From: Marchantia polymorpha subsp. ruderalis
Taxonomy: Eukaryota > Streptophyta > Marchantiopsida > Marchantiales > Marchantiaceae
Assembly (NCBI GenBank): GCA_037833965.1
Contig: AP031353.1
Span: 3,536,501-3,600,500 of the forward strand
Reading direction: 5' to 3'
DNA length: 64,000 nucleotides
Part shown: piece by piece, positions 1 to 64,000 of the stretch
Numbering within the stretch: the first letter of the stretch is position 1
Layout: each line of letters starts with the position of its first letter
Program-made: the position numbers and the translations under genes
The notes under the pieces: generated by a model
What the model was told of the DNA's origin: nothing
The model's database searches: none
What the model saw: the letters and a program-made list of their open reading frames with translations, nothing else

Positions 1-192
1 GATATAAGTCAACCGAAAGTCTGCACCACCGATGATCGTTTTAACATTGCGCAGCATACCTGTAGGCATTCTCCTCGTCTGATCCGCTAATCTCAGCACA
101 CGCCTCGAGGGTTTGTATTGACTGAACCCCAAGGCTCTTGCGGTGTCCTCCGTCATTATGTTGACTCCTGACCCAGAGTCTACTGGTACCCT
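1..192 (-). CDS. Start of Ty3/Gypsy aspartic protease, cut by window edge
   Basis: Read on the minus strand, the first ~190 bases encode VPVDSGSGVNIM followed by a helical stretch (TEDTARALGF). This is the D-S-G active-site motif of a retropepsin, the protease that matures the retroelement polyprotein. It continues leftward out of the window, where RT, RNase H and integrase would be expected. It lies in the -1 frame relative to gag, whose stop codon (180-182) overlaps it; no classical slippery heptamer is visible at the junction, so either a one-base loss or an unusual frameshift site separates the two. The family identity is clear from the motif and from the gag gene directly upstream; whether this copy is functional cannot be judged. 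Confidence 0.8.
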
Positions 193-2501
193 GCGCACAC
201 AACACCTGCTATTTCCACATCGATCTCTGGTGGCCCTTGGTCTTCGCTGGCCACTTGATACACTTGAGAGGATTTGGATGCGCGTGGCTTCCGCGGACGT
301 CGAAACGAAAGCATCAACATCCTTCGATACGTCTTGTTGTCCTCAAGAAGCTGGTTGAACGTGATGTTCACTTTCCGACTCCCGAGATCTTCCACTAAGT
401 CATAGTGGACGCGTTGGGTCGCAAGGGTCGGGGACGACGCCCTGCGAGGTTCCAAAGTGGCTGCCAACTTCACCCCAAAGGAGGGTGACAAGTCTGGCCG
501 CGGGGGGTCTTTTTGAGTGCGGATCGCTTCCTTCAACAGGTTCGTTACCTCGTTGTTGATATCCGGGGCATAGTCCCGTTTCAGCAAGCGTACTGGCTCA
601 TCCTCGACCGATGTCTGGGGGCGCACTGCTGGTGCTTCTCGCGTAACCGAAGACTTTCGTGCAGGTCGCAAGTCGGACTTGCTGGACGCCTTCTCCTTCC
701 CTTTTCCCGTCCGGTCGTCGGCTCTCCGTTCGTGCTTGCGAGTGTCGCGCTCTTGTTCCTTCGATTTCTTGGAACTACGAGTTTCGACTCGTGCGCACAT
801 CACCTCTTCAGCCGGCCATTCTTCATCTTCGTCGTTTCCGTCCGAACCTACTTCGACCTGGTTGACTTGGACGTCCTCCTTGGCAGGAGTGGTCACAAAT
901 CGTACCGATGGCCGAGGAACTGGTGGCTGATCACACTCTGGCGCAGTGTGCCCGGTCTTCTTGCAGTTACTACATGTCGGGACATAATCGTTTCGCCCTT
1001 TTGGATGGGGGCACTGCGGTGAGAAGTGTCCGACTTCTCCACAATTATAACAAGCTCGCGGTGGCGGTGGGTCAAACGTCCCGGGAGGTGCTCTCCGCCT
1101 TACAGGTACCGTAGTGGCCCGATCCACCGGATGATATCGTGGAACCTGCATTGCTGAAACCGCAGTAGGGGTGGGGACCAACTGGACGGCGTAGGCTGTC
1201 TCTTCGCTCGCCTCTCCATAGTACTGGGGGTGTTCTCCATAGTACGGTTGTGCCCACTCCACTGCGTTGACTGGATATGACGGACGGGTGGTAAGACACT
1301 CGGTGTTCGCATGTCCCACCGCTCCGCACGTAGTGCACCACAAGTTCGCCCGCACTCTACCAGGTGATTTTCGGCGATCATGGCCGCCTACCACTTGAAC
1401 TTTGAGGTCGGCGAAGTCCTTCACAAGGGTCTCCATCTTCGAGGCTATGTCTCCCGGCGCTCTGTCCGTAGTCACTCGTCGGGTGCCCTTCTTCTTCGCT
1501 GCCCCATGCTTCTTTCTCTTCTTCTCTTCCTCCGACGATGAGGTTTCCTCTTCTTTGGATGAGGAACGGTTCTCGTCCGAGGACGATTCTTCCGAGGACG
1601 GAGTTGCATCCCTGCGTCGTCTTCGCCCTCCCTTCGGTTTTCGCTCCTTTGACTCACGTCGCTCTCTCCCTCTTCGGTTGAGAGTGGAAGTCTCGAAGGC
1701 TTCGGCCGATGCAATCACATCCTCAATAGTATCGCACTTGCTGCGTCGGCAAAAGGTCTCCATCTCCCGAGTTAAGCCAGTCACGTACCAATCCACAGCT
1801 TGCTGTACCGAGAAAGGGGACCCTGGTCCTGTTTTCGGTATTCTGTCCAGGAGATCCAGAAATCTCTCAGTGTAGTCACGCAGACTCTCCTTCTTTTCTC
1901 GCTGCAGATTACGCAACTTTGTCAATACCCGACTGTCGTAGCAGAGCTCGCGGAAGCGTCGAAGGAACTTTTCCTTCAGCTGGGCCCATGTTGTCAACCC
2001 AGTCGGATCGATGCTCTCGTGATTGTACCAACTTCTTGCTTTCTTCCGCAGAAGACTTGGAAAGATCCTTAGTTGGTCTTCGTCTGCGATCTCGCGATTA
2101 GCAATGGACACCGATTCGAACAACTTGATGTATGAATCTGCATCGTCGTCATCCCCACTCCCTTTATACTTTGGGTAGGAATGTTTAGTAATCGGCTGAG
2201 GTAGCCGCACATTGGCTTGTCCGTCCGCCATCGGTGTGTCTGTCGACGGTTCTCGGGCGGTCGGTTCTAAATCACGAGGGGGGTCCGTGCAAGGAATATC
2301 TAGTAGAACTGTAAGGACCAAGTTTGGTTCCGAGTCACTGGGGGTAGGGTCCCCAAGGATGTCGGCCGAACTGGGCTTAGGTACTCTTTTTGGTGTTTTC
2401 TTGTTTTGACGCCGTGTCTCTTCCACGGCCTTCTCTGAATCTCGTCGGACCCTGCGGGCAGCTCTCGCACTTAGGTTGCTCCCGCTAGCTCCAGTCGACA
2501 T
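180..2501 (-). CDS. gag: Ty3/Gypsy gag (capsid-nucleocapsid) protein, 773 aa
   Basis: This is the structural protein of the LTR-X retrotransposon; it packages element RNA into cytoplasmic particles. Residues ~108-270 match the retrotransposon gag capsid domain (YPKYKGSGDDDDADSY, then the RKKARSWY and FLRRFRE motifs). Three CCHC zinc knuckles follow at roughly residues 390, 485 and 510 (CTTCGAVGHANTEC, CYNCGEVGHFSPQC, CSNCKKTGHTAPEC). Between capsid and knuckles lies a Glu/Ser/Lys/Arg-rich tract. The start is the first ATG after the 5' LTR, leader and primer binding site, 46 bases from the primer binding site. The reading frame is intact over 2.3 kb, making this the best preserved internal region of this family in the window. 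The protease follows in the -1 frame. The zinc knuckles and capsid motifs are seen; RNA packaging is family knowledge. Confidence 0.92.
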   Translation of the reverse strand: MSTGASGSNLSARAARRVRRDSEKAVEETRRQNKKTPKRVPKPSSADILGDPTPSDSEPNLVLTVLLDIPCTDPPRDLEPTAREPSTDTPMADGQANVRLPQPITKHSYPKYKGSGDDDDADSYIKLFESVSIANREIADEDQLRIFPSLLRKKARSWYNHESIDPTGLTTWAQLKEKFLRRFRELCYDSRVLTKLRNLQREKKESLRDYTERFLDLLDRIPKTGPGSPFSVQQAVDWYVTGLTREMETFCRRSKCDTIEDVIASAEAFETSTLNRRGRERRESKERKPKGGRRRRRDATPSSEESSSDENRSSSKEEETSSSEEEKKRKKHGAAKKKGTRRVTTDRAPGDIASKMETLVKDFADLKVQVVGGHDRRKSPGRVRANLWCTTCGAVGHANTECLTTRPSYPVNAVEWAQPYYGEHPQYYGEASEETAYAVQLVPTPTAVSAMQVPRYHPVDRATTVPVRRRAPPGTFDPPPPRACYNCGEVGHFSPQCPHPKGRNDYVPTCSNCKKTGHTAPECDQPPVPRPSVRFVTTPAKEDVQVNQVEVGSDGNDEDEEWPAEEVMCARVETRSSKKSKEQERDTRKHERRADDRTGKGKEKASSKSDLRPARKSSVTREAPAVRPQTSVEDEPVRLLKRDYAPDINNEVTNLLKEAIRTQKDPPRPDLSPSFGVKLAATLEPRRASSPTLATQRVHYDLVEDLGSRKVNITFNQLLEDNKTYRRMLMLSFRRPRKPRASKSSQVYQVASEDQGPPEIDVEIAGVVCAGYQ

Positions 2502-2547: not shown

Positions 2548-2565
2548 TCCCCGGCAGCGGCGCCA
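2548..2565 (-). other. Primer binding site, tRNA-Asp type
   Basis: On the minus strand TGGCGCCGCTGCCGGGGA lies 22 nt downstream of the LTR terminus (GGGTTATTACA) and upstream of gag. It is complementary to the 3' end of plant tRNA-Asp with its CCA, as used by Athila/Tat-type Ty3 elements (recalled, with one position differing from the sequence I remember). It fixes element polarity and shows that the LTR ends at 2588. Confidence 0.85.
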
Positions 2566-3550
2566 AAAAGAAGTTGTCGGCTTCTTATGTAATAACCCAC
2601 TAAAGGCTAAAACTGCAATATAGTGGTAGAAAGGTCGAACCCACAGGGACAAAGGAACACACAGGGTACAAATTGTCACGTTTAACAAACTATTGAGGAG
2701 TTTGAATTCTCAGGCGACTGTCACTCCCAGAAATACTGCAAGTGTCCACTCGGAGCGCACTCGGAGGTCGCACAGTGCAGCGTAACACACACACACACAC
2801 ACCTGAAACTACAGAAACACAACCCAGAGATCCGTTAGGACCTCTACTCAAGATTTCAGGGGGAAGGTCTCTCAGGAGTCACTCAGCGAAGCTGCGGGCA
2901 GTGACTTCCAACTCCGGCTTTTACAACACTTCCACTAGCTTGCTGCTAGTGTAGGAAATCCGGTTTGGACTGCCTACTTCGGATCGAAGTCACTCATACG
3001 CGGTGAACAACACTCTCAACTCACAAAACGCGCAGAGAACACAGGTCCGCACTAAAGGACTCACTGTGAAACATTCCAGTAACACAACAACAGTCTATTG
3101 AAGAGTTTGAATTCTCAGGCACTTGTCATTCCCAGAAATACTACAGGGGTTACCCTCAAGGCACCTGCTGCAGCGTAACCTGAATTTACAACCAAGGCTT
3201 ACACGAAGTAGCAAAACTTCACTTTGGCATTCAGGGGAAAAATCCCAAAGGAGTACAATCAGAAAGAAACACTCGAAGGTGTAGGGGCGAAACTGTTCAA
3301 GTATCTAACTAGTCACTGGCTCTTAGCATTGGCAGTCACTCGCAGGTGCAGATCCGAACTACTCAAGTCTCTAACCAATGTGCTAGCTCTTAACATTCGG
3401 CCGAAGGCCTTCAGCTACAAAATGCGGAACGCTAAGTTGTAACTCCTCGTGCGTGGTGACAGAACTCAAGGACACAAACACGCAAAGGAAATGGGTTCCT
3501 GATCTGCACTTCTGAGTTTGGGAAAGAACCCCAGGCAAAACGCCTGGAAC

Positions 3551-3559
3551 TATTTTATA
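3551..3559 (-). promoter_or_regulatory. TATA box of retroelement promoter
   Basis: TATAAAATA on the minus strand, ~35 bp downstream of the gene X stop and ~960 bp before the LTR end. The same TATAAARTAG block recurs in every other copy (near 10948, 18450, 20150, 29660, 31150, 36360, 57970 and 62953), which marks it as the likely U3/R promoter. Confidence 0.65.
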
Positions 3560-3595
3560 CCTTCTAAGTCCTAACTAACACTACACTGCACTACG

Positions 3596-6500
3596 CTACA
3601 CGCCTGCATGGAACCACGCTACACTACACTCCGCGGAACCTGTGCTACGTCTCCTGCGCGACGGACTGCCGCGCACTATCTCCCTACCCTGCCTGTCTTC
3701 CGCTCGACTGCGCAGTCCCAATCGCTGCAACGCCGCGGACACCTCCACTTCGAGGGCGGACATGGTATCCCGCGCCTTCGACAGAAAAGCGTCGAGCTTC
3801 TTTGCTACCTTCCGCCGACTCCTGCTGTCGCCTTACAACAACCCGGCTGCGCGAAGTTCAAACTCACGCAGTGTGAGTTTCTCCTGCGCCGCCACTTCCC
3901 AGTGGGCGGCGAGACGCCTCGCCGTCTCCACCTTTGTGCGATCTGCCTCCTGCCTGCGATCCTCTTCAATTACCACTAATTGCGATTCGGCCTCAGCACG
4001 TTGCGCTCTCAATTCGCCACACTCTGACTATAGCCTGCGGATTAAATCCTCATCCGCCTGTCGTGCGAGCTGACACTGCTCTAACAACCGCGTCTGTCGC
4101 ACGAGCTCCTCTGACAAAATCCGATTCTGGGCCTGCTCAGAAATTAGTGCTTCAGTGACCTTCACCTGCTCCTTGGTGAGCTCTTCCAGTTTCCCATCCC
4201 TCACCTTTTCGGAGTACTTGTAGAATTTCTGATTGAGTTTATACTGACCCCACAAGCATTCATGCTTCTCCTTCAATTCCCTCAACTCCTGGTCCACTCT
4301 AGCTAGTATCTTGCTGGTGTGGACTTTAGTGCGAGTCCGCCTGCGCACTAATTCGATGTAAGATCCCGGCTGATGTGGGTCGGCGTATTTATCGATTTTG
4401 CGATCCAAGTACCTCAGCAACGAAATCACCTGCTCCGAGAACGCCGCCGCCGGCGCTCCAACAATTTCCTCCTCCTCCTCCTCGGTATCCCCTGCTCCTA
4501 ACATTTCTTCGGTGGAGCCTCCGTCGTCATCATCCGAGTGGAGAATTTCAGTCGCCATTGATTGCGTCGGCGACTGACCCGAGTGGGGCTGCACGTCGTC
4601 GACGTGTGCTGCCTGCGAAGGCACTGCTGCAGCCTCGCTGCTCTTTGCCAAAATGTCTAAGGCGGTAGGCGAATGTGCCCGTGCTACATCCCCACCGCCC
4701 TCTTGTTGGTCTTCTACCGTATCCTCTCTGCCGCCGACGTCCGCCGCCGAAGGCGATCGAGCAGAGGATGGCTATGCGGGGTTTGATTGCGCATCGCGCA
4801 CCGAAATTTCATCCCGCGGACAGTCACTCCGCTCCTCCGTCTGTTGCTGCTCCCTTGATCGGTCCGCGGAGGCTGTGCTTGGCCTGTGCGCAGGCGCAAA
4901 TGCCGGCGCCTTGTCCGCCGTAGGCGTAGCGCCTCGGACGTCCACCGCCAAAGGCGACATGGCTGGGGGCCGCTCGCCCGATGTCCCTTGGCCCTGAGGC
5001 CCTACCGCCGAAGGCGCATCTACCGGCCGATCCCGCCCGCCGATGGTGCGGCCTCCGCACGCTCCATGCTCGTATCTCCTCGGTTCGAAGGCCCTAGCAC
5101 CGAAGGCGCAAATCGCGGCGCGTTGTGCGCCGGAGGATCTGGCCCCGAAGGCCGGTGTTTCGTAGGCGGATCCTCCGCCGGCTCCTTCCCCTTCCTACGT
5201 TGGAATGGGGGTGATTCCTGCCTGTGCACAGGCGGCACGTGTGGAGGTGACCTGTGCACAGGCGACCTGTGCATAGGCGAGCGCCTGTGCACAGGCGGAC
5301 TTCTTCTTCCCACGCGTAAGCGTAGGTCTACGTCCGCTTGTGGTCGTCTGTCCGCGGAGTCTCGCCTGTCCGCGGAGGCTCGTCCGTGCGCAAACGGAAC
5401 ACCTGTCCGCAACGCACGTGGTAACTCCGGAGGCCCTTGGCCCGTAGGCGGCCTCTCGTCCGTCGAGGCTGCAGCGTGGTCCGTTGCTCCTGCGGACGTC
5501 CGCGCTCCCTCGTTCTTCTCTGGCGACGCACTTCCTTTCTCCGTCGCAATCGTCGCCGTGTCCGCGCTGTTGGCTGGTAACACCAGTTTGAGCGCCTTCT
5601 GCTTCGGCCGGCTGTATGACTCGTACAACGGCCGCGGTCGAATGGGAGCAGAGGGTTCTTGATGCTGCTCCTCTTCGGACTCCTCTCTCCATCGCCGCTT
5701 CCGCGGCGCTCGTGCTGCAGGAGTGTTCCTCCCTTCGTCCCTCCGCCTTGACGGGGTAGAAGTCGGTGACTCCTCTGCATCAGTGTCGACCTCATTCTCC
5801 TGTACATACTTCCCGGGATGGTCGACGGACAACGGCGGAAAACGTGCAAGCTCCGCCGCTGTCAAACAATTCCGCTGTCGATAAAAATTGATGAGGAAAG
5901 GAGAGAGATGGTTTAGAGTTCCCCCCTTCTCCTCAAAAGCGTGCTGTCGCATCACCCTGTGCAGGATGCTCGCCCAGTGAATTGGAGTTCCCTCGATGAC
6001 GCACTCCACAAAAGAGACCTGCCACAATGTGATGTAGCAGGCGCGGTGTGGCTACAGTAATTGCATCAGCGCCGCGGACAAAGTCCGGCGGAATCGATCC
6101 TTGTAATCGCGGGTCTTGTACCCATTCTTGATAGACCTCCCGGTCTTGAACAGCTCCACAAATTGCGCCTCTTCCTGCTTGGTCACCTTGATGCTCTCAC
6201 TGTCAAAGAGGAGGTGCCCTGGCATGCGAGGGTGGTCCCTGTGGCTCTAGCCACTCGCGCACCATATCCGCACAGATGTAGTTCCATCCCCATAGCAAGA
6301 AATTGAGCTTTCTTGCTATCAAGCGCTCCTCGAAAGCGCGCAGCCCGTTCTGTGGTAGACAGAGCGGCAGCATCCGCAATCGGCCCGGTCTCGTCATTGC
6401 GTTCTTGGAGTTCGCCCGCCCGCTCATTCTACTTCCGCTCCGCTCGAGCTCCTTTCTTCCTCGGCAAACTCTAATCGCCCTCACTTCCAAATCACGCGCA

Positions 6501-6649
6501 CTCACTTCTCCCTCAATCACCAAGAAATCCTCTGCGCGGCGATGTCGAGAATGCTTCGCAGCCAGCAAGTGGACGCGCGCAGCTCGCACTAGAGAATAGA
6601 ATCACGAATTCAAGAATGGGACGCTCTCCGCTGCCCGGTCGAAGGTCAT
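3596..6649 (-). pseudogene. Gene X copy 1 (LTR-encoded coiled-coil protein), degenerate
   Basis: ATG at 6649 (minus), terminal stop at 3596-3598. The N-terminal domain motifs (LLWGWNYIC, NMVREWLEPQ), the repeat linker and the C-terminal coiled coil (LVRQTRLLEQCQLA) are all recognisable. It is broken by a TGA at codon 16 (CGA in other copies), by a ~90-bp deletion near 6225 that removes the DRWTVQDWAQALGRC segment, by frameshifts in the linker, and by a TAG at 4028-4030 where other copies have CAG. Function is unknown; I recognise no named family. It is the gene X of the 5' LTR that precedes the intact gag, so even the youngest-looking element carries a dead gene X. Confidence 0.7.
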
Positions 6650-7836
6650 GGTCGGCTCTTGCTCGTCGAGGACGTCTCAATTGATGGCCGCGCCGGCTCT
6701 ATGCTGAAACGGTCTCCGCTCTCACGTGCGGCTTCACGCTCCGCCGTCGCCGATTAAACTCTCACGCTCGAATTGGCGAGTTTGAACTCCGCGAGCGTAC
6801 TACGCCGCGGACCTGGGTGCGCAGCGCCGAAGGCGGATTTTCCGCCTTGCGCAGTACACTCGTACGTACCGCTCCTCAGCCAATCCTCCTCCGCCTCGGC
6901 GCGTGTGTCCGCATGTCGGACAAAAGTTCAACCCCCGCTTGCGCGCAGGCGGACTCCTCGGCGAATTCTCTGCCGGTTCGGAACTTCACCCTCCTGTGCA
7001 CAGGCGCTCGCCTGTGCGTAGGCGAAGTCTGTCCGCGGCGATGCGCTGGCGCGGAAGGCGTTGACCGCGGTCAACCGACTCCGTCCAGATTGTCCGTTCC
7101 TTGTCTCTTCGTCGGCGCTTCCGCCGCCGCAACTCCGTCCGTCCAAGAGCGCATCCATCCGTCCCGTCCGTACGGTCCGTACGGATTTTACTATTGTGGC
7201 GGCTCCTTGCTCATCCGCGGCGATGCGCTGGCGCAGAAGGTGCCGTACAATTTCTACCTCACAAGGCGCATTTCTAGGGCCCAAGGCGGATTTCCCGCCG
7301 ACGCCGAAGCGCCTGTGCACAGGCAAACTTCGCGCCGATCTCAAAAACCCTATCTCGCCTGTGCGCAGGCGAACTTCCTTCGTCCGCGCATAGGACAAAA
7401 CTTCTCCGCTTGTGCGCAGACGAAGAGCTGAGTATCTTACAACCTTCATAACTCCCGGAGTCCTTATCCGTTGTTGGCGTTCTTGGGCTCGTTGGAATCA
7501 GTGCGTCGAGCTCTTTCTAACCAGACCCTAACTAAGTCAAGGCGTCCGGGGGTTGACCTAAATACGAAGGATTTCCCTACCGCCGCGGACGCAGCTCCGA
7601 AGGCGGGTTTTGCGCCTTGCGCCGTAGGGATCCTAGCTGCAGAGTTCGCAGAGAGGGTAGTGGCCGTCCTTACCGCTGCACCCAACTCCTAGATTCTACG
7701 AGATTCCTCGAGAATCTCTGCGATCTTCCGAATTCACTCTGTTTTGATGCACCGAAGGCTATTTACATTGCTGCCAGGGCACAGTTTTCCAAAAATGTTT
7801 TAAACTCCTCAAAATTACCAAAAGTGGGGTACCACA

Positions 7837-9967: not shown

Positions 9968-10161
9968 TGTAATAACCCACTAAAGGCTAAAACTGCAATA
10001 TAGTGGTAGAAAGGTCGAACCCACAGGGACAGAGGAACACACAGGGTACAAAGTGTCACGTTTAACAGACTATTGATGAGTTTGAATTCTCAGGCGACTG
10101 TCACTCCCAGAAATACTGCAAGTGTCCACTCGGAGCGCACTCGGAGGTCGCACAGTGCAGC

Positions 10162-10200
<39 letters not shown>

Positions 10201-10947
10201 CTGAAGCTACAGAAATACAACCCAGAGATCCGTTAGAACCTCTACTTCAAGATTTCAGGGGGAAAGTCTCTCGCGAGCACACTCGGCAAAGCTGCGGGCA
10301 GTGACTTCCAACTCCGGCTTTTACAACACTTCCACTAGCTTGCTGCTAGTGTAGGAAACCCGGTTTGGACTGCCTACTTCGGATCGAAGTCACTCCTCCG
10401 CGGTGAACAACACTCTCAACTCACAAAACGCGCAGAGAACACAGGTCCGCACTGAAGGACTCACTGTGAAACATTCCAGTAACACAACAACAGTCTATTG
10501 AAGAGTTTGAATTCTCAGGCACTTGTCATTCCCAAAAATACTACAGGGGTTACCCTCAAGGCACCTGCTGCAGCGTAACCTGAATTTACAACCAAGGCTT
10601 ACACGAAGTAGCAAAACTTCACTTTGGCATTCAAGGGAAAAATCCCAAGGGAGTACAATCAGAAAGAAACACTCGAAGGTGTAGGGGCGAAACTGTTCAA
10701 GTATCTAACTAGTCACTGGCTCTGAGCATCGGCAGTCACCCGCAGGTGCAGATCCGAACTACTCAAGTCTCTAACCAATGGACTAGCTCTGAACATTCGG
10801 CCGAAGGCCTTCAGCTACAAAATGCGGAACGCTAAGTTGTAACTCCTCGTGCGCGGTGACAGAACTCAAGGACACAAACACGCAAAGGAAATGGGTTCCT
10901 GATCTATACTTCTGATGGGAAAGAACCCCAGGCAAAACGCCTGGAAC

Positions 10948-10956
10948 TATTTTATA
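10948..10956 (-). promoter_or_regulatory. TATA box of LTR-X (copy at 9968-15359)
   Basis: TATAAAATA on the minus strand downstream of the gene X stop, same context as at 3551-3559. Confidence 0.6.
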
Positions 10957-10992
10957 CCTTCTAAGTCCTACCTAGCACTACACTGCACTACG

Positions 10993-13900
10993 CTACACGC
11001 CTGCACGGAACCACGCTACACTACACTCCGCGGAACCTGTACTACGTCTCTTGCGCGGCGGACTGCCGCGCACTAACTCCCTACCCTGCCAATCTTCCGC
11101 TCGACTGCGCAGTCCCAAACGCTGCAACGCCGCGGACACCTCCACTTCGAGGGCGGACATGGTATCCTGCGCCTTCGACAGAAAAGCATCGAGCTTCTTT
11201 GCTACCTTCCGCCGACTCCTACTGTCGCCTGACAACAACCCGGCTGCGCGCAATTCAAACTCACGCAGTGTGAGTTTCTCCTGCGCCTTCACTTCCCAGT
11301 GGGCGTAGCCCCTGAGACAGTGGGCGACACGCCTCGCCGTCTCCACCTTCGTGCGATCCGCCTCCTTCCTGCGATCCTCTTCAATTATCACTAATTGCGA
11401 TTCGGCCTCAGCACGTTGCGCTCTCAATTCGCCACACTCTGACTGTAACCTGCGGATTAACTCCTCATCCGCCTGCCGTGCGAGCTGACATTGTTCCAAC
11501 AACCGCGTCTGTCGCACGAGCTCCTCTGACAAAATCCGATTCTGGGCCTGCTCAGAAATAAGTGCTTCCTTGACCTTCACCTGCTCCTTGGTGAGCTCGT
11601 CCAGTTTCTCATCCTTCACCTTCTCGGAGTACTTGTAGAATTTCTGATTAAGTTTATACTGACCCCACAAGCAGGCATGCTTCTCCTTCAATTCCCTCAA
11701 CTCCTGGTCCACTCTAGCTTACAGCTTGCTGGTGTGGACTTTAGTGCGAGTCCGCCTGCGCACTAACTCGATGTAAGATCCCGGCTGAAGTGGGTCGGCG
11801 TATTTATCGACCTTGCGATCCAAGTACCTCAGCAACGGAATCACCTGCTCAGAGAGCGCCGCCGCCGGCGCTCCAACAATCTCCTCCTCCTCTTCCTCGG
11901 TGTCCTCTGCTCCTGACATTTCTTCGGTGGAGCCTCCGTCGTCATCATCCGAGTGGAGAATTTCAGTCGCCATTGATTGCGTCGGCGACTGCCCCGAGTG
12001 GGGCTGCACGTCGACGACGTGTGCTGCCTGCGAAGGCACGGCTGCAGCCTCGCTGCTCTTCGCCAAAATGTCTAAGGCGGTAGGCGAATGTGCCCGTGCG
12101 GCATCCCCGCCGCTCGCTTGTTGGTCGTCTACCGTGTCTTCTCTGCCGCCGACGCCCGCCGCCGAAGGCGATCGAGCGGAGGGTGGCTGCGCGGGGTTTG
12201 ATTGCGCATCGCGCATCGAAATTTCATCCCGCGGACAGTCACTCCGCTCCTCCGTCTGTTGCTGCTCCCTTGATCAGTCCGTGGGGGCTGTGCTCGGCCT
12301 GTGCGCAGGCGCAAATTGCGGCGCCTTGTCCGCCGCAGGCGTAGCGCCGCGGACATCCATCGCCAAAGGCGACATGGCCGGGGGCCGCTCGCCCGATGTC
12401 CCTTGGCCTATAGGCCCTACCGCCGAAGGCGCATCTATCGGCGGACTACCCGCCGATGGTGCGGCCTCCGCACGCTCCCTGCTCGTATCTCCTCGGCTCG
12501 AAGGCCCTGGCGCCGAAGGCGCAAATTGCGGCGCGTGGTGCGCCGGAGGGTCTGGCCCCGAGGGCCGGTGTCTCGTAGGCGGTTCTTCCGCCGGCTCCTT
12601 CCCCTTCCTACGTTGGAACGGGGGTGATTCTTGCCTGTGCACAGGCGGCACGTGTGGAGGTGTCCTGTGCACAGGCGACCTGTGCACAGGCGAACTGCTC
12701 CTTCCCACGCGTAAGCGTAGATCCACGTCCACTTGTGATCGCCTGTCCGCGGAGGCTCGTCCGTCCGCGGAGTCTCGTCTGTGCGCAAACGGAACATCTG
12801 TCCGCAACGCACGTGGTAACTCCGGAGGCCCTTGGCCCGTAGGCGGCCTTTCTCCCGTCGAGGTTGCAGCGTGGCCCGTTGCTCCTGCGGTCATCCGCGC
12901 TTCCTCATGCTTTTCTGGCGACGCACTTCCTTTCTCCGTCGCAATCGTCGCCGTGTCCGCACTGTCGGCTGGTAACACCAGTCGGCGTGCCTTCTGCTTC
13001 GGCCGGCTGTATGACTCGTACAGCGGCCGCGGTCAAATGGGAGCAGAGGGTTCTTGATGCTGCTCCTCTTCGGACTCTTCTCTCCATCGCCGCTTCCGCG
13101 GCACTTGTGCTGTAGGGGTGTTTCTCCCTTCGTCTCTCCGCCTTGATGGGGTAGAAGTCGGTGACTCCTCTGCATCAGTGTCGACCTCATTCTCCCGCAC
13201 ATACTTCCCGGGATGGTCGACGGACAATGGCGGAAAATGCTCAAGCTCCGCTGCTGTCAAACAATTCCGCTGTCGATAAAAATTGATGAGGAAAGGAGAA
13301 AGATGGTTTAGAGTTCCCCCCTTCTCCTCAAAAGCGTGCTGTCGCATCACCCTGTGCAGGATGCTCGCCCAGTGAATTGGAGTTCCCTCGATGACGCACT
13401 CCACAAAAGAGACCTGCCACAATGTGATGTAGCAGGCGCGGTGTGGCTGCAGTAATTGCATCAGCGCCGCGGACAAAGTCCGGCGAAATCGATCCTTGTA
13501 ATCACGGGTCCTGTACCCATTCATGGTAGACCTCCCGGTCTTGAACAGCTCCACAAATTGCGCCTCTTCCTGCTTGGTCACCTTGATGCTCTCACTGTCG
13601 AAAAGGAGATGCCCTGGCATGCCAGCACATCTTCCCAACGCCTGCGCCCAATCTTGGACTGTCCACCGATCGACATGCGGACGCAATCCGCGCGAGGGTG
13701 GTCCCTGTGGCTCTAGCCACTCGCGCACCATATTCGCACAGATGTAGTTCCATCCCCATAGCAAGAAATCGAGCTTTCTTGCTATTAAGCGCTCCTCGAA
13801 AGCGCGCAGCCCGTTCTGTGGTAGGCGAAGTGGCACCATCCGCAATCTGCTCGGTCTCGTCATTGCGTTCCTGGGGTTCGCTCGCCCGCTCATTCTACTT

Positions 13901-14115
13901 CCGCACCGCTCGAGCTCCTTTCTCTCTCGGCAAACTCTAATCGCCCTCAATTCCAAATCACGCGCATTCACTTCTCCCTCAATCAACAAGAAATCTCCTG
14001 TGCGGCGACGTCGAGAATGTTTAGCAGCCAGCAGATGGATGCGCGCAGCGCGCACAAGAGATTGGAATCGCGAATTCAAGAATGGGACGTTCTCCGCCGC
14101 CCGGTCGAAGGTCAT
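10993..14115 (-). pseudogene. Gene X copy 3: near-complete 1,040-codon frame with three point stops
   Basis: This is the most informative copy. From ATG at 14115 to the stop at 10993 a single frame spans 1,041 codons with no indel, interrupted only by TGA at 13033 (codon 361), TGA at 12274 (codon 614) and TAA at 11719 (codon 799). Other copies read CGA, CGA and TTA there. The N-terminal domain (1-310) has LDFLLWGWNYIC (~116), DRWTVQDWAQALGRC (~149), NGYRTRDYKDRFRRTL (~199) and HLSPFLINFYRQRNCL (~271). Then come an Arg/Glu-rich segment, a Pro/His/Arg linker with PVHR repeats (~361-700), an acidic DDDD/EEEEEE patch (~715-740), and a coiled coil (~800-930) leading into a conserved GYAHWEV...TLREFELRAA...RLGLRSR end. 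Function unknown; it could be capsid-like, env-like or regulatory. The upstream region is palindrome-rich. Confidence 0.75.
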
Positions 14116-15359
14116 GGTCGGCTCTTGCTCGTGGAGAACGTCTCACTTGATGGCCGCGCCGGCTCTACGCTGGAACGGTCTCCGCTCTCACGCGCGGCTT
14201 CACGCTCCGCCGTCGCCGATTAAACTCTCACGCTCGAATTGGCGGATTTGAACTCCGCGAGCGTATTACCCCGCGGACATGGGGGCGTAGCGCCGAAGGC
14301 GAGTTTTCCGCCTTGCGCGGTACACTTGTTCGTACCGCCCCTCGACCAATCCCCCTCTGCCTTGACGCGTGTGTCCGTATGTCGGACAAAAGTTCAACTC
14401 CTGCCTGTGCGCAGGCAGACTCCTCGGCGGATTCTCCGCCGGCGCGGAACTTCATCCTCCTGTGCACAGGCGCTCGCCTGTGCGCAGGCGAATTCCGTGC
14501 GCGGCGTCGCGCTGGCGCGGAAGGCGTTGACCGTGGTCAGCCGTCTCCGTCCAGTCTGTCCGTTTCTTGTCTCTTCGTCGGCGCTTCTGCCGCCGCAACT
14601 CCGTCCGTCCAAGAGCGCATCCACCCGTCCCGTCCGCATGGTCCGTACAGATTTGATTACTCTGGCGGCTCTTCCGCCGTACGCGGCGCTGCGCTGGCGC
14701 GGAAGGCGCCGTACACTTTCTACCTCACAAGGCGCATTTCTAGGGCCCAAGGCGGATTTCCCGCCGACGCCGAAGCGCCTGTGCACAGGCGAACGCCTGT
14801 GCGTAGGCGGACTTCGCGCCTCCCCAAACCCTACTTCGCCTGTGCACAGGCGAACGCCTTCGTCCGCGCATAGGACAAAACTTGATTCCCCCTTCCGCGT
14901 AGGCGGAATTCCCGCCGGTGGCGAACTCCTTCCGCCGAAGGCGACCGTCTCCGTATCTTCCAATAGTGATAACTCCCTAAGTCCTCATCCGTTCCAAGCG
15001 TTCTTGGACTCGTTGGAATCAGTGCGTCGAGCTCTTTCCAACGAGACCCTAACTTGGTCAAGGCGCCCGAGGGTTGACCTAATTATGAAGGATTTCCCTA
15101 CCGCCGCGGACGCAACCTCCGAAGGCGGGTTTTGCGCCTTGCGTCGTAGGGGTCCTAACTGCAGAGCTCGCAGGGAGGGTGGTGCCTGTCCTTACTGCTG
15201 CACCCCAAATCCTAGATTCTACAAGATCCCTCGAGAATCCCCGCGATCTTCCGGATTCACTCCGTTTTGATGTACCGAAGGCTATTTACAATGCTGCCAG
15301 GGTACAGTTTTCCAAAAATGTTTTAATTTCCTCAAAATTGCCAAAAGTGGGGTACCACA

Positions 15360-57059: not shown

Positions 57060-58018
57060 TGTAATAACCCACCAAAGGCTAAAACTGCAGTATGGTGGTA
57101 AAAAGATCGAACCCACAGGGACAGAGGCAACACACAGAGTAAAAGTGTCACGTTTAACAGACTTTTGTAGAGTTTGAATTCTAGGCGACTGTCACTCCCA
57201 GAAATACTGCAGTGCTCGACTCGGAGGCTCGACTCGGAGGAGGATCTCAACTCGGAGGATGCTCGGAGGATGCACGGTACAGCGTGGTCACTCAACACAC
57301 ACACACACACACACCTGAAACTGGCAAAAAGCACAACTCGGAGGTCGGTCAGGACCTCCGCTTCGGATTTCAGGAGGAAAGTGTCTCACAAGTTCACTCA
57401 GAGGTTCTGCAGGTAGTGCCTCCCACTCCGGCTTTTACTGCCCTTCCGCCAGGAACTAGCGGGGGTACCCGGACTGGACTTCCCACTTCGGAACGAAGCC
57501 TCTACGTACGCCGTGTACGTCACCCTCGACTATCACACAAAACGCAGGGAGTGCAGACCCGACTGAGAACTTACTGAAAACACGATCCAGTAACACACAC
57601 ACAACCTGAATTACAAACCAAGGTTTACACGAAGTAATGAAACTTCACATTGGCATTCAGGGGAAACTTCCCGTAGGAGTACAATCAGGATATGTCACTC
57701 GAAGGAGTAAGGGGGAACTGTTCAAGTCTCTAACTCGCAGCCGGCTCTGAGCATCAGAAATCACCCGCAGGTGCAGATCCGCACTACTCAAGTCTCTAAC
57801 CGGGTGCTAGCTCTGAACATTCAGCCGAAGGCCTTCAACTACAACATACGGTAACTTCGCTATGCTGCAGCTTCTCTACGTGGCGCCAGGACCAAAATGC
57901 ACAAACACGCCAAGAAAGTGAGTTCCTGATCTGCACTTCCGAAACTGGAAGAGTCCCAAGGCAAAACGCCTTGATCTACTTTATACTCTCAAAAGATCCT
58001 AACTAGCACTACGCTATC

Positions 58019-59208
58019 CTATCTACCACTCGCAGTATCTGCGCGAAACCAAACTACTCTACTGCACTCAGCAGATCCGGTGCTGCGCCTCCTGCGCGCC
58101 GGACTGCTCCGCTTACTATCTCTACCTTGCCAGTCTTCCGACCGGCTGCGTAACCCCAGGCGTCGGAGCGCTGTGGTGACTTCCGACTGCAAGTGCGCCA
58201 TTGTGTCGCGCGCACCCGACAAGAAGGTTTCTAATTTTCTCGCCACTCGCCGCCGACTCCGACTGTCACCTTCCGTCAATGCCGCCGCCCGAAGCTCGAA
58301 CTCCCTGAGTGTGATCCTCTCTTGAGCTGCCACCTCCCAATGGGTGTATCCTTTTAGACAACGAGTCACCTGTGCCGCCAACTCTCCTCGCGCCCTGCAG
58401 CTGCTCTCCACCTCGGCCAGCTGCATTTCTAATCCCGCACGTTGTGCCCTCAAATCCGAGCACTCGGATTGCAAGTTGCACAACAACTCCTCATCCTCCT
58501 TGCGGGCTCTTTGACTTTCTTCTAAGGCGCGCGTCTGGCGCGCAAGCTCGGCTGCTAGGACTTTGTTCTGTCTCCGCTCCTCCTGCAGTTCCGACTCGAT
58601 CTTTGCCCGTATTAGTTCGGCATCCGCCTGACTTTTCGTCGCCGCATCCTCCTTCTGCTGCTGCAAGGCTTGGTATAGCTTCTGGGTGACCGCCAGGTGT
58701 TGTCGGAGGGCGGTGTTCCTTTCCACATATACTTGGCAACTAGAGGCCCACTTTGCCACCTTGATCCTCGTCCTTCGCCTGATAGTCTCCACATAAGACT
58801 GTGGTTTTAAGGCACTTCCGTATTTGGATGTCTTGCGATTTAGATATCGCAGGAGTGGAACTATCTGTTCGCACAGCACCCCTGTTGGCGTTTTCTGCAC
58901 CGAATCCGCTTCTTGCTCTTCCGAGCTCGTCTCATCCTCAGTCTCGAGGATTTCAGTCGCCACCGAATCCCTTGGCGACTCCCTGGAACTGTGGCGCGCA
59001 GCAGCTTCCGCTGCGACTGCTGCTCCACTGCCTGCTAAAATATCCAGGGCAGTGGGAGATCCCTCTGCTTGAGCCCCTGTTCCGGCTCGATCTTCGGTTT
59101 GTGAAGGGATCGACGCCGCAGTGACTTTTGTCACTCTTGCACCGCCCGCTTCTGCTGCCTGTCCTTCCGGCACAATCTGCGCGGAAGGTGTCCTTGCTGA
59201 AAGTGCGT
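58019..59208 (-). pseudogene. Gene X copy 10 (subfamily B), C-terminal half
   Basis: About 396 codons of uninterrupted minus-strand frame from the insertion point to a stop at 58019. It has a linker ending SARTPSAQIVPEG, a Ser/Glu acidic patch (ETEDETSSEEQEADS), the SYVETIRRRTRIKV block, a coiled coil (ALRQHLAVTQKLYQALQQQ), the GYTHWEVAAQERITLREFELRAA motif and the C-terminus SAECSRVVWFRAD. The frame continues across the inserted LTR into 64000-63926, where it still reads without stops. The apparent extension into 59209-59389 is LTR sequence. This could be a functional gene interrupted only by the insertion. Confidence 0.65.
59204..59208 (+). repeat. Target-site duplication TGCGT, left
   Basis: TGCGT immediately precedes TGTGGTACCCC at 59209 and recurs at 63926-63930 after TTATTACA. 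The two flanks also join into one gene X reading frame. Confidence 0.88.
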
Positions 59209-60449
59209 TGTGGTACCCCACTTTTGGCAATTTTGAGGAAATTAAAACATTTTTGGAAAACTGTACCCTGGCAGCATTGTAAATAGCCTTCGGTACATCA
59301 AAACAGAGTGAATCCGGAAGATCGCGGGGATTCTCGAGGGATCTTGTAGAATCTGGGATTTGGGGTGCCGCAGTAAGGACAGGCCCCACCCTCCCTGCGA
59401 GCTCCGCAGTTAGGATCTCTACGGCGCAAGGCGCAAAACCCGCCTTCGGAGGTTGCGTCCGCGGCTGTAGGGAAACCCCCGTAATTAGGTAAACCCTCAG
59501 GCGCCTTGACCAAGTTGGGTCCCGTTGGAAAGAGCTCGACGCGCTGATTCTAACGAGCCCAAGAACGCTTGGAACGGACGAGGACTTAGGGAGTTATCGC
59601 TACTGGAAGAAACGGAGGCGGTCGCCTTCGGCGGAAGGAGTTCGCAACCGGCGCGAATTCCGCCTACGCGGAGGGGGATTCAAGTTTTGTCCTATGCACG
59701 GGCGAAGGCGTTCGCCTGTGCACAGGCGTAGTAGGGTTAGGGAAGGCGCGAAGTTCGCCTACGCACAGGCGAACGCCTGTGCACAGGCACTTCGGCGTCG
59801 GCGGAAAATCCGCCTTGGGCCCTAGAAATGCGCCTTGTGAGGTAGAAAGTGTACGGCGCCTTCCGCGCCAGCGCAGCGCAGCGTACGTCGGAGGAGCCGC
59901 CAGAGTAATCCAATAGGTACGGACCGTGCGGACGGCACGGGTGGATGCGCTCTTGGACGGACGGAGTTGCGGCGGCGGAAGCGCCGACGGAGAGACAAGG
60001 AACGGACAGACTGGACGGAGACGGCTGACCACGGTCAACGCCTTCCGCGCCAGCGCAGCGCCGCGGACGGAATTCGCCTGCGCACAGGCAAACGCCTGTG
60101 CACAGGAGGATGGAGTTCCGCGCCGGCGGAGAATCCGCCGAGGCTCCTGCCTGCGCACAGGCAGGAGTTGAATTTTTGTCCGACATGCGGACACACGCGT
60201 CAAGGCAGAAGGAGATTGGCCGAGGGGCGGTACGAACAAGTGTACCGCGCGAGGCGGAAAACTCGCCTTCGGCGCTACGCCCCCATGTCCGGAGGGTGAC
60301 ACGCTCGCGGAGTTCAAATCCGCCAATTCGAGCGTGAGAGTTTAATCGACGACGGCGGAGCGTGAAGCCGCGCGTGAGAGCGAAGACCGTTCCAGCGTAC
60401 AGCCGGCGCGGCCATCAAGTGAGACGTTCTTCACGACCAAGAGTCGACC

Positions 60450-62916
60450 ATGACCTTCGACCGGGCGGCGGAGAACGTCCCATTCTTGAATTCGCGATTC
60501 CAATCTCTTGTGCGCGCTGCGCGCATCCATCTGCTGGCTGCGGACCATTCTCGACGTCGTCACACAGGAGATTTCTTGTTGATTGAGGGAGAAGTGAGTG
60601 CGCGTGATTTGGAATTGAGAGCGATTAGAGTTTGCCGAGAGAGAAAGAAACGCGGACAGTGCGGAAGTAGAATGAGCGGGCGAGCGAACCCCAGGAACGC
60701 AATGACGAGACCGAGCAGATTGCGGATGGTGCCACTTCGCCTACCGCAGAACGGGCTGCGCGCTTTCGAGGAGCGCTTAATAGCAAGAAAGCTCGATTTC
60801 TTGCTATGGGGATGGAATTACATCTGCGCGAATATGGTGCGCGAGTGGCTAGAGCCACAGAGACCACCCTCGCGCGGATTGCGTCCGCATGTGGACCGGT
60901 GGACAGTCCAAGATTGGGCGCAGGCGTTGGGAAGATGTGCTGGCATGCCAGGAAATCTCCTTTTCGACAGTGAGAGCATCAAGGTGACCAAACAAGAAGA
61001 GGCGCAATTTGTGGAGCTGTTCAAGACCGGGAGGTCAACCAAGAATGGGTACAGGACCCGTGATTACAAGGATCGATTTCGCCGGACTTTGTCCGCGGCG
61101 CTGATGCAATTACTGCAGCCGCACCGCGCCTGCTACATCACATTGTGGCAGGTCTCTTTTGTGGAGTGCGTCATCGAGGGAACTCCAATTCACTGGGCGA
61201 GCATCCTGCACAGGGTGATGCGACAGCACGCGTTTGAGGAGAAGGGGGGAACTCTAAACCATCTTTCTCCTTTCCTCATCAATTTTTATCGACAGCGGAA
61301 TTGTTTGACAGCGGCGGAGCTTGAACATTTTCCGCCATTGTCCATCGACCATCCCGGGAAGTATGTGCGGGAGAACGAGGTCGATACTGACGCAGAGGAG
61401 TCACCGACTTCTACCCCATCAAGACGGAGGGACGAAGGGCGACACACTCCTGCAGCGCGAGTGCCGCGGAAGCGGCGATGGAGGGAAGAGTCCGAAGAGG
61501 AGCAGCATCAAGAACTCTCTGCTCCCATTCGACCGCGGCCGCTGTGCGAGCCATACAGCCGGCCGAAGCAGAAGGCACGCAGACTGGTGTTACCAGCTGA
61601 CAATGCAGACACGGCGACGATTGCGACGGAGATAGGTAGTGCGTCGCCAGAGAGGCGAGAGGAAGCGCGGACGACCGCACGAGAGACGGGCCACGCTGCA
61701 ACCTCGTCGGGAGAGAGGCCGCCTACGGGCCAAGGGCCTCCGGAGTTACCACGTGCGATGCGGACAGAGGTTCCGTTTGCGCACAGGCGAACCTCCGCGG
61801 ACGGACGAGCCTCCGCGGACCGGCGAGCAGAAGTGGACGTGGATCTACGCTTACGCGTGGGAAGGAGCAGTCCGCCTGTGCACAGCACACGTCGAGGACG
61901 TGCAGCCCCACTCGGGGCAGTCGCCGACGCAATCAATGGCGACTGAAATTCTCCACTCGGATGATGACGACGGAGGCTCCACGGAAGAAATGTCAGGAGC
62001 AGAAGACACCGAGGAGGAAGAGGAGGAAATTGTTGGAGCGCCGGCGGCGGCGCTCTCTGAGCAGGTGATTCCGTTGCTGCGGTACTTGGATCGCAAGGTC
62101 GATAAATACGCCGACCCACTCCAGCCGGGATCTTACATCGAGTTAGTGCGCAGGAGGACTCGCACTAAAGTCCACACCAGCAAGCTATTAGCTAGAGTGG
62201 ACCAGGAGTTGAGGGACTTGAAGGAGAAGCATGAGTGCTTGTGGGGACAGTACAAGCTTAATCAGAAATTCTACAAGCACTCCGAGAAGATGAAGGATGA
62301 GAAACTGGGCGAGCTCACCAAGGAGCATGTGAAGGTCAAGGAAGCACTCGATTTTGAGCAGGCCCAGAATCGGATTTTGTCAGAGGAGCTCGTGCGACAG
62401 ACGCGGTTGTTGGAACAATGTCAGCTCGCACGGCAGGCGGATGAAGAATTAATCCGCAGTTTGCAGTCAGAGTGTGGCGAATTGAGAGCGCAACGTGCCG
62501 AAGCCGAATCGCAATTAGTGACGATTGAAGAGGATCGCAGGAAGGAGGCGGATCGCACGAAGGTGGAGACGGCGAGGCGAGTCGCCCACTGTCTCAAGGG
62601 CTACGCCCACTGGGAAGTGAAGGCGCAGGAGAAACTCACACTGCGTGAGTTTGAATTGCGCGCAGCCGGGTTGTTGTCAGGCGACAGTAGGAGTCGGCGG
62701 AAGGTAGCGAAGAAGCTCGAGGCCTTTCTGTCGAAGGCACAGGATACCATGTCCGCCCTCGAGGGGGAGGTGTCCGCGGCGTTGCAGCGGTTGGGACTGC
62801 GCAGTCGAGCGGAAGAGTGGCAGGGTAGAGAGTTAGTGCGCGGCAGTCGGCCGCGCAGGAGACGTAGTACAGGTTCCGCGGAGTGTAGTGTAGCGTGGTT
62901 CCGTGCAGGCGTGTAG
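60450..62916 (+). pseudogene. Gene X copy 4, two intact halves joined by a frameshifting deletion
   Basis: The first frame, 60450-61946, opens with ATGACCTTCGACC and holds the complete N-terminal domain (LDFLLWGWNYIC, DRWTVQDWAQALGRC, HLSPFLINFYRQRNCL), the basic-acidic segment and part of the linker without any stop. Near 61880 a deletion joins CTGTGCACAG to CACACGTCGAGGAC, removing several hundred bases of linker and changing frame. The second frame, up to 62916, carries the acidic patch, the SYIELVRRRTRTKVH block, an intact coiled coil (VDQELRDLKEKHECLWGQY onward) and the C-terminus SAECSVAWFRAGV. Apart from this deletion both halves are intact. It might still express an N-terminal protein of ~480 residues. 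Function unknown. Confidence 0.75.
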
Positions 62917-62952
62917 CGTAGTGCAGTGTAGTGCTAGGTAGGACTTAGAAGG

Positions 62953-62961
62953 TATAAAATA
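62953..62961 (+). promoter_or_regulatory. TATA box of solo LTR-X
   Basis: TATAAAATA 37 bp after the gene X stop; the downstream LTR part (~965 bp) would be R plus U5. Confidence 0.6.
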
Positions 62962-63925
62962 GTTCCAGGCGTTTTGCCTGGGGTTCTTTCCCATCAGAAG
63001 TGCAGATCAGGAACCCATTTCCTTTGCGTGTTTGTGTCCTTGAGTTCTGTCACCACGCACGAGGAGTTACAACTTAGCGTTCCGCATTTTGTAGCTGAAG
63101 GCCTTCGGCCGAATGTTCAGAGCTAGTACATTGGTTAGAGACTTGAGTAGTTCGGAACTGCACCTGCGGGTGACTGCCGATGCTCAGAGCCAGTGACTAG
63201 TTAGATACTTGAACAGTTTCGCCCCTACACCTTCGAGTGTTTCTTTCTGATTGTACTCCTTGGGATTTTTCCCCTGAATGCCAAAGTGAAGTTTTGCTAC
63301 TTCGTGTAAGCCTTGGTTGTAAATTCAGGTTACGCTGCAGCAGGTGCCTTGAGGGTAACCCCTGTAGTATTTCTGGGAATGACAAGTGCCTGAGAATTCA
63401 AACTCTTCAATAGACTGTTGTTGTGTTACTGGAATGTTTCACAGTGAGTCCTTCAGTGTGGACCTGTGTTCTCTGCGCGTTTTGTGAGTTGAGAGTGTTG
63501 TTCACCGCGTCTGAGTGACTTCGATCCGAAGTAGGTAGTCCAAACCGGGTTTCCTACACTAGCAGCAAGCTAGTGGAAGCGTTGTAAAAGCCGGAGTTGG
63601 AAGTCACTGCCCGCAGCTTTGCCGAGTGTGCTCGTGAGAGACTTTCCCCCTGAAATCTTGAAGTAGAGGTCCTAACGGATCTCTGGGTTGTGGTTCTGTA
63701 GTTTCAGGTGTGTGTGTGTGTGTGTGTTACGCTGCACTGTGCGACCTCCGAGTGCGCTCCGAGTGGACACTTGCAGTATTTCTGGGAGTGACAGTCGCCT
63801 GAGAATTCAAACTCCTCAATAGTCTGTTAAAACGTGACACTTTGTACCCTGTGTGTTCCTCTGTCCCTGTGGGTTCGACCTTTCTACCACTATATTGCAG
63901 TTTTAGCCTTTAGTGGGTTATTACA

Positions 63926-64000
63926 TGCGTCCGCCGAAGGCGTCCGCACACTGGTCGTTGGCCCCATCCGTCTCGCAGTCGGCGAATCCGGCTGACTCTC
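63926..64000 (-). pseudogene. Continuation of gene X copy 10 beyond the solo LTR
   Basis: The first five bases repeat the TGCGT duplication. The minus strand then reads a Pro/Ser/Thr-rich linker (SQPDSPTARRMGPTTSVRTP) in frame with 59208-58019. It continues past the window end. Confidence 0.6.

What the first reader, a model, noticed from the sequence alone, without database searches (positions are those of the whole stretch)
59209..63925. A retrotransposon LTR that encodes a ~1,040-codon protein (gene X in U3)
Seen: a 4.7-kb unit with TG...CA ends, flanked by perfect TGCGT duplications, contains gene X but no gag, pol or internal direct repeat. The same unit at 2588-7836 is followed directly by a leader, a tRNA-Asp primer binding site and gag. 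A conserved TATA box lies downstream of gene X. Known: LTRs end at the primer binding site, and recombination between the LTRs of one element leaves a solo LTR with its target duplication. Inference: gene X lies in U3 and would be at the 3' end of genomic RNA, analogous in position to LTR genes of some retroviruses. I know of no described plant Ty3 family with this arrangement.
Basis: partly seen in the sequence, partly recalled or inferred. Interest (0 to 1): 0.92.

Follow-up and report, generated by a model that had tools for sequence, protein, structure and literature searches.

The report
Protein gene inside retrotransposon's terminal repeats
In a liverwort genome, a family of jumping genes keeps a large, evolutionarily protected protein gene inside each of its two end repeats, where such elements normally keep only control sequences, so the gene is copied twice per jump and can outlive the rest of the element.

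Summary
The 59209-63925 unit is a solo LTR with a 5-bp TGCGT duplication. Its own gene X is broken: about 0.7 kb is missing and the frame shifts. The same genome (taken as Marchantia polymorpha) holds full-length copies whose direct terminal repeats are 5,358-5,412 bp, flank 5.8 kb of gag-pro-pol and contain gene X (1,034-1,051 codons where open, sense) in both repeats. Gene X is under purifying selection: pN/pS is 0.098 in its N-terminal domain and 0.085 in pol; the LTR regions before and after it give 0.57-1.13. A second diverged family has the same layout. The only TATA box shared by the six copies scanned lies just downstream of gene X, which puts the gene in U3 if that TATA drives genomic RNA. 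The protein has an N-terminal domain, a low-complexity middle and a long coiled coil, matches no Pfam family convincingly and is not env-like. None of my ten paper searches turned up a plant LTR described as coding. Expression and function are inferred, not shown.

The parts
59209..63925 (+). Solo LTR (copy W1) of the family-A element, 4,717 bp; undeleted relatives 5,358-5,412 bp
   Evidence: TG..CA ends and TGCGT duplication; same unit is the direct terminal repeat of full-length elements
59204..59208 (.). Left copy of 5-bp target site duplication TGCGT
63926..63930 (.). Right copy of 5-bp target site duplication TGCGT
60450..61889 (+). Gene X, N-terminal part (aa 1-480 of the 1,034-aa protein of copy C9b, 97% identical)
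61864..62916 (+). Gene X, C-terminal part (aa 685-1034, 97% identical) with the coiled coil; shifted in frame from the N part
61883..61887 (+). Junction of the ~0.7-kb deletion that breaks gene X in this copy; CAG at both ends of the lost piece
62953..62962 (+). TATAAAATAG, the only TATAA shared by the six LTR copies scanned; presumed promoter of genomic RNA
   Evidence: TATAAAGTAG at the corresponding place in families B and C
62990..63925 (+). Presumed R-U5 (start inferred from the TATA); as a whole the most conserved region of the LTR between copies
   Evidence: mean pairwise difference 0.0125 in LTR 4351-5359 against 0.053 in LTR 1-1245
2588..7836 (-). 5' LTR (copy W3) of an element that runs off the left side of the window; gene X decayed (5 stops)
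2548..2565 (-). Primer binding site TGGCGCCGCTGCCGGGGA (tRNA-Asp type by recall)
180..2501 (-). gag ORF, 773 aa (Retrotrans_gag, zinc knuckles)
9968..15359 (-). Another LTR of the family, 5,392 bp, gene X with 3 stops
57060..59203 (-). 3' part of an LTR of a second family (B), with the C-terminal part of its gene X from 58019; the solo LTR W1 is inserted in it

Best explanation
This is a Ty3-type LTR retrotransposon of Marchantia polymorpha whose ~5.4-kb LTR carries a large accessory gene. Shown: gene X is in both LTRs of full-length elements, in sense with gag-pol, between the LTR 5' end (which follows the polypurine tract) and a conserved TATA box; it is under purifying selection; and at least two diverged families share the layout. 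Inferred: the TATA starts genomic RNA, so gene X lies in U3. Only the copy in the 3' LTR is then part of that RNA, and reverse transcription copies it into both ends of the new element. LTR-LTR recombination removes gag-pol but leaves a solo LTR with gene X. Most likely (inferred, about 55%) the protein is made from a spliced subgenomic RNA that joins the leader to gene X in the 3' LTR, as for sag or env; a TATA-less promoter in the first 1.2 kb of the LTR is the main alternative (about 35%). Most likely function (inferred): a coiled-coil-forming, nuclear accessory protein with a basic N-terminus that acts in trans for the family, not an envelope. Most likely origin (inferred): a third gene 3' of pol became part of U3 when the polypurine tract in use came to lie upstream of it, directly after pol.
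For: Direct repeats that include gene X, with matching TSDs at three places. 1-11 substitutions between the LTRs of eight pairs. GGGGGGCA before 3' LTRs and leader plus PBS after 5' LTRs. The pol ORF ends 37 bases before the 3' LTR in the two copies read (C4, C7), so no other third gene lies between. Gene X without a stop or gap of note in 8 of the 14 genomic LTRs examined whole: C9a/b, C3a/b, C4d/e, C5a/b. The last 538 codons are open in 21 of 30 loci. pN/pS: N-domain 0.098 (0.057-0.163), C-terminal 0.238, whole gene 0.298, against 1.2-1.5 in four of the five other frames; the fifth is the antisense frame that shares third positions, 0.370; pol 0.085 in six copies. Family B: gene X DNA repeated at 10,658-10,661 bp in eight intervals at six places; one of these has a first LTR of 4,870 bp, TSD CTCAT and the same PBS. 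One shared TATA. C-terminal coiled coil with pLDDT above 90 in its core. No transmembrane-like stretch; best 19-residue mean hydropathy 1.14.
Against: No RNA or protein data: promoter, splicing and translation are untested. Elements whose gene X is damaged in both LTRs exist: C7 lacks about 511 codons in frame, C4a-c share a stop at codon 849, and L010/L025, presumably the two LTRs of one element, share a deletion. So gene X is not needed in cis by every copy, and dispensability cannot be excluded. 6 of the 14 genomic LTRs, 9 of the 30 loci and all three window copies are not intact, and the 30 loci are the best matches to the query, which favours young copies. The N-domain model is poor (pLDDT 46). 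The antisense frame that shares third positions also has low pN/pS (0.128 in the N-domain), as expected from the sense constraint but not separable from it by this test alone there.
Confidence: 0.8

Rival explanations
1. The true LTR is only the ~1-kb TATA-to-TTACA part; gene X is an internal gene present once per element.
For: The TATA lies 1 kb from the LTR end, and ~1 kb is a common LTR length (recalled).
Against: Both repeats of full-length elements begin at the unit's first base, after GGGGGGCA or the TSD, and include gene X. Family B gene X is also repeated at constant spacing.
Confidence: 0.01
2. Gene X is a fortuitous long ORF in GC-rich LTR DNA without function.
For: Several long antisense ORFs also exist in the LTR. 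Some gene X copies are broken.
Against: pN/pS 0.098 in the N-domain, close to pol, with four of the five other frames at 1.2-1.5 over the whole gene. Protein related between families at 44-60% identity.
Confidence: 0.02
3. Transcription starts upstream of gene X, so the gene lies in R/U5 and is the first ORF of the genomic RNA; the TATA after it serves something else.
For: Nothing direct; the first ~60-100 bases of the LTR are somewhat conserved between families. One annotated M. polymorpha protein joins a gene X C-part to gag (P0049).
Against: No TATAA shared by the six copies upstream of gene X; the one shared TATA and the most conserved region lie downstream. It would need a terminal redundancy of more than 3 kb.
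Confidence: 0.12
4. Gene X is a captured host gene or remnant of another transposon that inserted into an ancestral LTR, rather than a third gene overtaken by U3.
For: The only named relatives found are from Marchantia, so an independent origin cannot be excluded.
Against: Same order with respect to the TATA and LTR end in families A, B and C. No single-copy host homologue came up, though only the best candidates were scored and none was looked for specifically.
Confidence: 0.3
5. Gene X is an env-like gene moved into the LTR.
For: Position 3' of pol in sense, as env-like ORFs of plant elements (PMC7264820, parts 1-2 of 3 read).
Against: No hydrophobic segment; coiled coil and basic N-terminus instead.
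Confidence: 0.05

Closest known systems
Plant non-chromovirus Ty3 elements with a sense 3' additional ORF (Athila; sunflower Athila 14 aORF with partial Transposase_32 similarity and a nuclear signal, PMC11728184, passages seen)
   Same: Sense extra gene 3' of pol; tRNA-Asp-type PBS (recalled); no chromodomain found by Pfam
   Different: Here the gene lies beyond the PPT, inside the LTR, and is present twice. No Transposase_32, plant mobile domain, Transposase_28 or Athila ORF-1 match was among the families listed for 50 gene X proteins (25 of 30 families shown). PF20167 gave no match in the genome search, which rang in no control either; the same search for PF10536 did not complete.
MMTV sag and other retroviral genes in or overlapping the LTR (recalled; MMTV papers with 'LTR encodes' or 'LTR contains an ORF' appear in the listings, not read)
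   Same: Protein gene in U3, carried at the 3' end of genomic RNA (for gene X inferred)
   Different: No sequence relation looked for or claimed; gene X has 1,034-1,051 codons, in a plant Ty3 element without an internal env, and is conserved across families
Large-LTR plant non-chromoviruses (LTRs up to about 5 kb, PMC6317226 section 13 read) and barley LARDs (recalled)
   Same: LTR length around 5 kb
   Different: Those long LTRs are not described as coding in the sections read; the elements here also carry gag-pro-pol
Maize Grande gene23 and other antisense 3' ORFs (PMC7264820)
   Same: Accessory gene kept by many copies; nuclear protein in Grande
   Different: Antisense and between pol and the 3' LTR; gene X is sense, in the LTR and double

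Membership tests
Ty3/Gypsy LTR retrotransposon | pol order RT, RNase H, integrase | tested here: met
   RVT_1 130-289, RNase H 353-482, zinc domain 585-640, rve 658-757 in the 946-aa ORF
Ty3/Gypsy LTR retrotransposon | gag with zinc knuckle, aspartyl protease | tested here: met
   Retrotrans_gag and zf-CCHC; Asp_protease_2 at E 4.8e-5
Ty3/Gypsy LTR retrotransposon | direct LTRs with TG..CA ends, 5-bp TSD, PBS, PPT | tested here: met
Chromovirus | chromodomain after integrase | tested here: not met
   none found by Pfam in two pol ORFs at E up to 0.1
Tat (Ogre, Retand) | additional RNase H domain | tested here: not met
   only one RNase H region found in two pol ORFs and one gag-pro piece
Athila | placement in the Athila clade by RT-RH-INT phylogeny | not tested
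   no labelled reference set at hand; nearest named pol relatives are Riccia sorocarpa, 71-76% for the top three named (best 120 of 5,287 listed)
Transposase_32 / plant mobile domain / Transposase_28 / Athila ORF-1 accessory proteins | match to PF20167, PF10536, PF04195 or PF03078 | tested here: not met
   not among the families listed for 50 gene X proteins at E up to 1 (25 of 30 shown); hhalign against one Transposase_32-bearing protein, probability 0.3-0.4%, a weak test because that domain is cut short there
Env-like protein | transmembrane segment | tested here: not met
   best 19-residue hydropathy 1.14 in one copy; no dedicated predictor run
LTR-encoded gene of the sag kind (works like) | intact conserved gene in U3 of both LTRs | tested here: met
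   U3 assignment rests on the TATA
LTR-encoded gene of the sag kind (works like) | expression from a spliced or LTR-driven RNA | not testable with these tools
   no RNA data available
LARD (non-autonomous large LTR element) | no gag-pol | tested here: not met
   gag-pro and pol ORFs present

The most novel reading that the evidence does not exclude
The LTR is itself a mobile, self-sufficient gene: solo LTRs left after recombination go on expressing gene X, and this pool of proteins serves the whole family in trans. Elements with a broken gene X can then still move, while selection keeps gene X intact at the level of the family. LTR-LTR recombination, normally a loss, would here preserve the accessory gene.
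Probability: 0.25. Interest if true: 0.88.

Novelty: new variant of a known kind. Interest (0 to 1): 0.76.

Why it matters
Plant LTRs are treated as non-coding control regions, and searches for additional genes look between them. A gene of more than 1,000 codons kept in both LTRs, under selection about as strict as pol in its N-terminal domain, breaks that assumption. It doubles accessory gene dosage per insertion, leaves the gene behind in solo LTRs, and suggests a simple route (a change in which polypurine tract is used) by which a third gene can enter an LTR. Marchantia is a tractable model, so expression, promoter use and function can be tested directly. It may also explain a set of 'hypothetical proteins' in the M. 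polymorpha annotation as products of LTR genes.

Tried and rejected
Rejected: repeats limited to ~1 kb; fortuitous ORF; envelope. Homology of the N-domain to Transposase_32: I recalled a resemblance of motif order, but Pfam on 50 proteins, the PF20167 genome search (no control rang) and hhalign against one Transposase_32-bearing protein gave nothing, so it stays a lead. PDB sequence search: no match. The N-domain structure prediction was too poor to search with and the coiled coil would give meaningless fold matches, so no fold search was run. Rfam on family C R/U5 and the family B leader: nothing. W1's deletion as a spliced intron: the ends are not GT..AG but share CAG, so microhomology deletion fits better. 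One search stopped with an error after its first block; one search replaces it. One search's sub-region pN/pS values were spoiled by slicing windows across the deleted copies; one search replaces them. Its whole-gene values and LTR pair counts stand. In one search one pol piece of seven (L042, 450 bases) was dropped as too short.

Papers: ten answered searches listed no paper whose title or abstract start describes a coding plant LTR; the listings are capped, subscription papers are mostly missing and bioRxiv is not held. What I saw of papers: PMC6317226 sections 7 and 13 and two passages; PMC7264820 parts 1-2 of 3; PMC11728184, PMC12885004 and PMC9985172 passages only; others as search listings.
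Full report
What was checked. The unit at 59209-63925 has TG..CA ends and a TGCGT duplication on both sides. The related copy at 2588-7836 (-) is followed by 22 bases, a PBS and gag. None of the three main window copies has an intact gene X: the solo copy lost about 0.7 kb and shifted frame, and the others have 3 and 5 stops.

Full-length elements. The window lies in a 241-Mb, 9-contig genome. One annotated M. polymorpha protein matches it at 100% over 299 aa, so I take the host to be M. polymorpha. Among the 44 matches to the LTR 3' part (40 candidates scored of 2,809), six intervals of 11,154-11,204 bp separate neighbouring copies at five places. Seven places were fetched as 17 stretches. 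The whole unit, 5,358-5,412 bp in the 12 undeleted LTRs measured, is the direct repeat: C3 (TSD CCTGT), C4 7.21 Mb (three LTRs, two internal regions, TSD ACCAG), C7 (TSD ACGTG, LTR 3,829 bp with part of gene X deleted in both LTRs), and C9, C5, C6 and C4 10.4 Mb, for which no matching TSD pair was established. The eight LTR pairs compared differ by 1, 9, 1, 3, 4, 1, 1 and 11 substitutions. The C4 10.4-Mb pair shares its outer flank, so it may be a segmental duplicate, and by their flanks the C9 and C5 pairs are neighbouring LTRs of arrays. Internal regions are ~5.8 kb, with gag-pro and RT-RH-INT ORFs in one frame separated by TAG. The pol ORF stops 37 bases before the 3' LTR in C4 and C7, and the bases before the LTR are GAGGAGGGGGGCA in C9.

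Gene X. It runs from the first ATG for 1,034-1,051 codons in 8 of 14 genomic LTRs examined whole. C4a, C4b and C6a have one stop and C4c two; C7a and C7b have a gap of about 511 codons that keeps the frame. In 30 loci that hold only the last 538 codons, 21 are fully open and 9 are not. These 30 are the best matches to the query, include several LTRs of the same elements and the window copy, and overlap the 14. Selection was measured on ten copies, one per element, aligned over the whole LTR. pN/pS is 0.386 for aa 1-89, 0.098 for 90-320, 0.503 for 321-690, 0.238 for 691-1034 and 0.298 overall. The other frames over the whole gene give 1.220, 1.357, 1.277, 0.370 and 1.467; the 0.370 frame is the antisense one that shares third positions. 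The region before gene X gives 0.72-1.13 and the region after it 0.57-0.94 in the six frames. pol in six copies gives 0.085. An earlier alignment gave similar values (0.362, 0.095, 0.490, 0.226, 0.287).

Other families. DNA from family B's gene X (window 58050-59200) gave 40 listed matches of 2,022 candidates; eight intervals of 10,658-10,661 bp at six places and one of 10,618 bp separate neighbouring copies. One triplet (C6 21.29 Mb) was read at its ends: first LTR of 4,870 bp, TSD CTCAT outside the first and third LTR, the same PBS after the first two LTRs and none after the third, and an open N-terminal part of gene X, 498 codons to the edge of the piece. Family C (C8 0.395 Mb) has a gene X frame open for 740 codons from stop to stop, then TATAAAGTAG, R/U5 and the LTR end, without a PBS after it. 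No close pairs were seen among its 40 scored candidates of 4,745, so for C the two-LTR layout is not shown.

Protein. Relatives found by profile search: 49 (7,994 candidates scored). A single-sequence search gave four of these. Pfam: nothing convincing. PDB sequences: none. In the C-terminal 350 residues a 181-residue helix is predicted, with pLDDT above 90 in its core. The N-domain model is poor. There is no strongly hydrophobic segment, and the N-terminus is basic (pI 11.6 for aa 1-89).

Signals. Only one TATAA is shared by the six copies scanned, 36 bases beyond the gene X stop. The region after gene X is the most conserved part of the LTR as a whole (0.0125 mean difference against 0.040 in gene X and 0.053 before it), although one 150-base bin of the N-domain is as low. 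Together these favour gene X in U3, by inference.

Reading. The simplest account is an accessory gene in U3. Copies with damaged gene X in both LTRs (C7, C4 7.21 Mb, presumably L010/L025) show that some elements persisted or moved without an intact own copy, which fits action in trans or dispensability. The nearest published relatives in position are sense 3' ORFs of Athila-type elements (PMC7264820; PMC11728184), which are described between pol and the 3' LTR.

Noticed in passing
L032:936-944 and 12 further rows (some loci overlap): gag-pro and RT-INT are in one frame separated by TAG followed by CAATTA (12 rows) or CAGTTA (1 row), the tobacco-mosaic-virus type of readthrough context (motif recalled). 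Suggests that pol is made by stop codon readthrough.
   Followed up: partly
2548-2587 (-) and the same place in related loci: 22-23 bases with an AAGAAG..CTTCTT inverted repeat lie between the LTR end and the PBS. The right end of the reverse transcript would carry these extra bases, so the integrase would have to trim far more than usual (expectation recalled).
   Followed up: partly
G000 C4:7210663-7238328, C6:21293116-21319305, C5:19699130-19721602, C9 14.40 Mb and C5:11.02 Mb: Head-to-tail arrays with three or more LTRs and shared internal regions (the last two judged from flanks, the third from spacing alone). Two have matching TSDs at their outer ends (ACCAG, CTCAT).
   Followed up: partly
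59204-63930: The solo LTR W1 is inserted in gene X of a family B LTR: all 75 bases of its right flank match family B gene X at 100%.
   Followed up: yes
63363-63419 and 63772-63828: A ~57-base motif occurs twice in R/U5, with matches in families B and C. Its core in family C, GAGGA TTCAAAC TCCTC, resembles a tRNA T-arm (recalled). No Rfam match.
   Followed up: partly
P0049 (MARPO_0006s0274, partial): Annotated protein that joins a gene X C-terminal piece to a gag domain; could be a fused gene model or a readthrough/spliced transcript.
   Followed up: no
54004-55212 (-), 40523-41731 (-): 402-aa ORFs in repeated DNA; the one at 54004-55212 is a tyrosinase/polyphenol oxidase, the other lies in a related copy and was not scanned.
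   Followed up: no
31744-32381: Array of 15-bp repeats overlapping a minus-strand ORF of 242 aa.
   Followed up: no
25748-27004 and 36852-37747: Repeated copies of the LTR segment around position 300-450, possibly amplified upstream control sequence.
   Followed up: no
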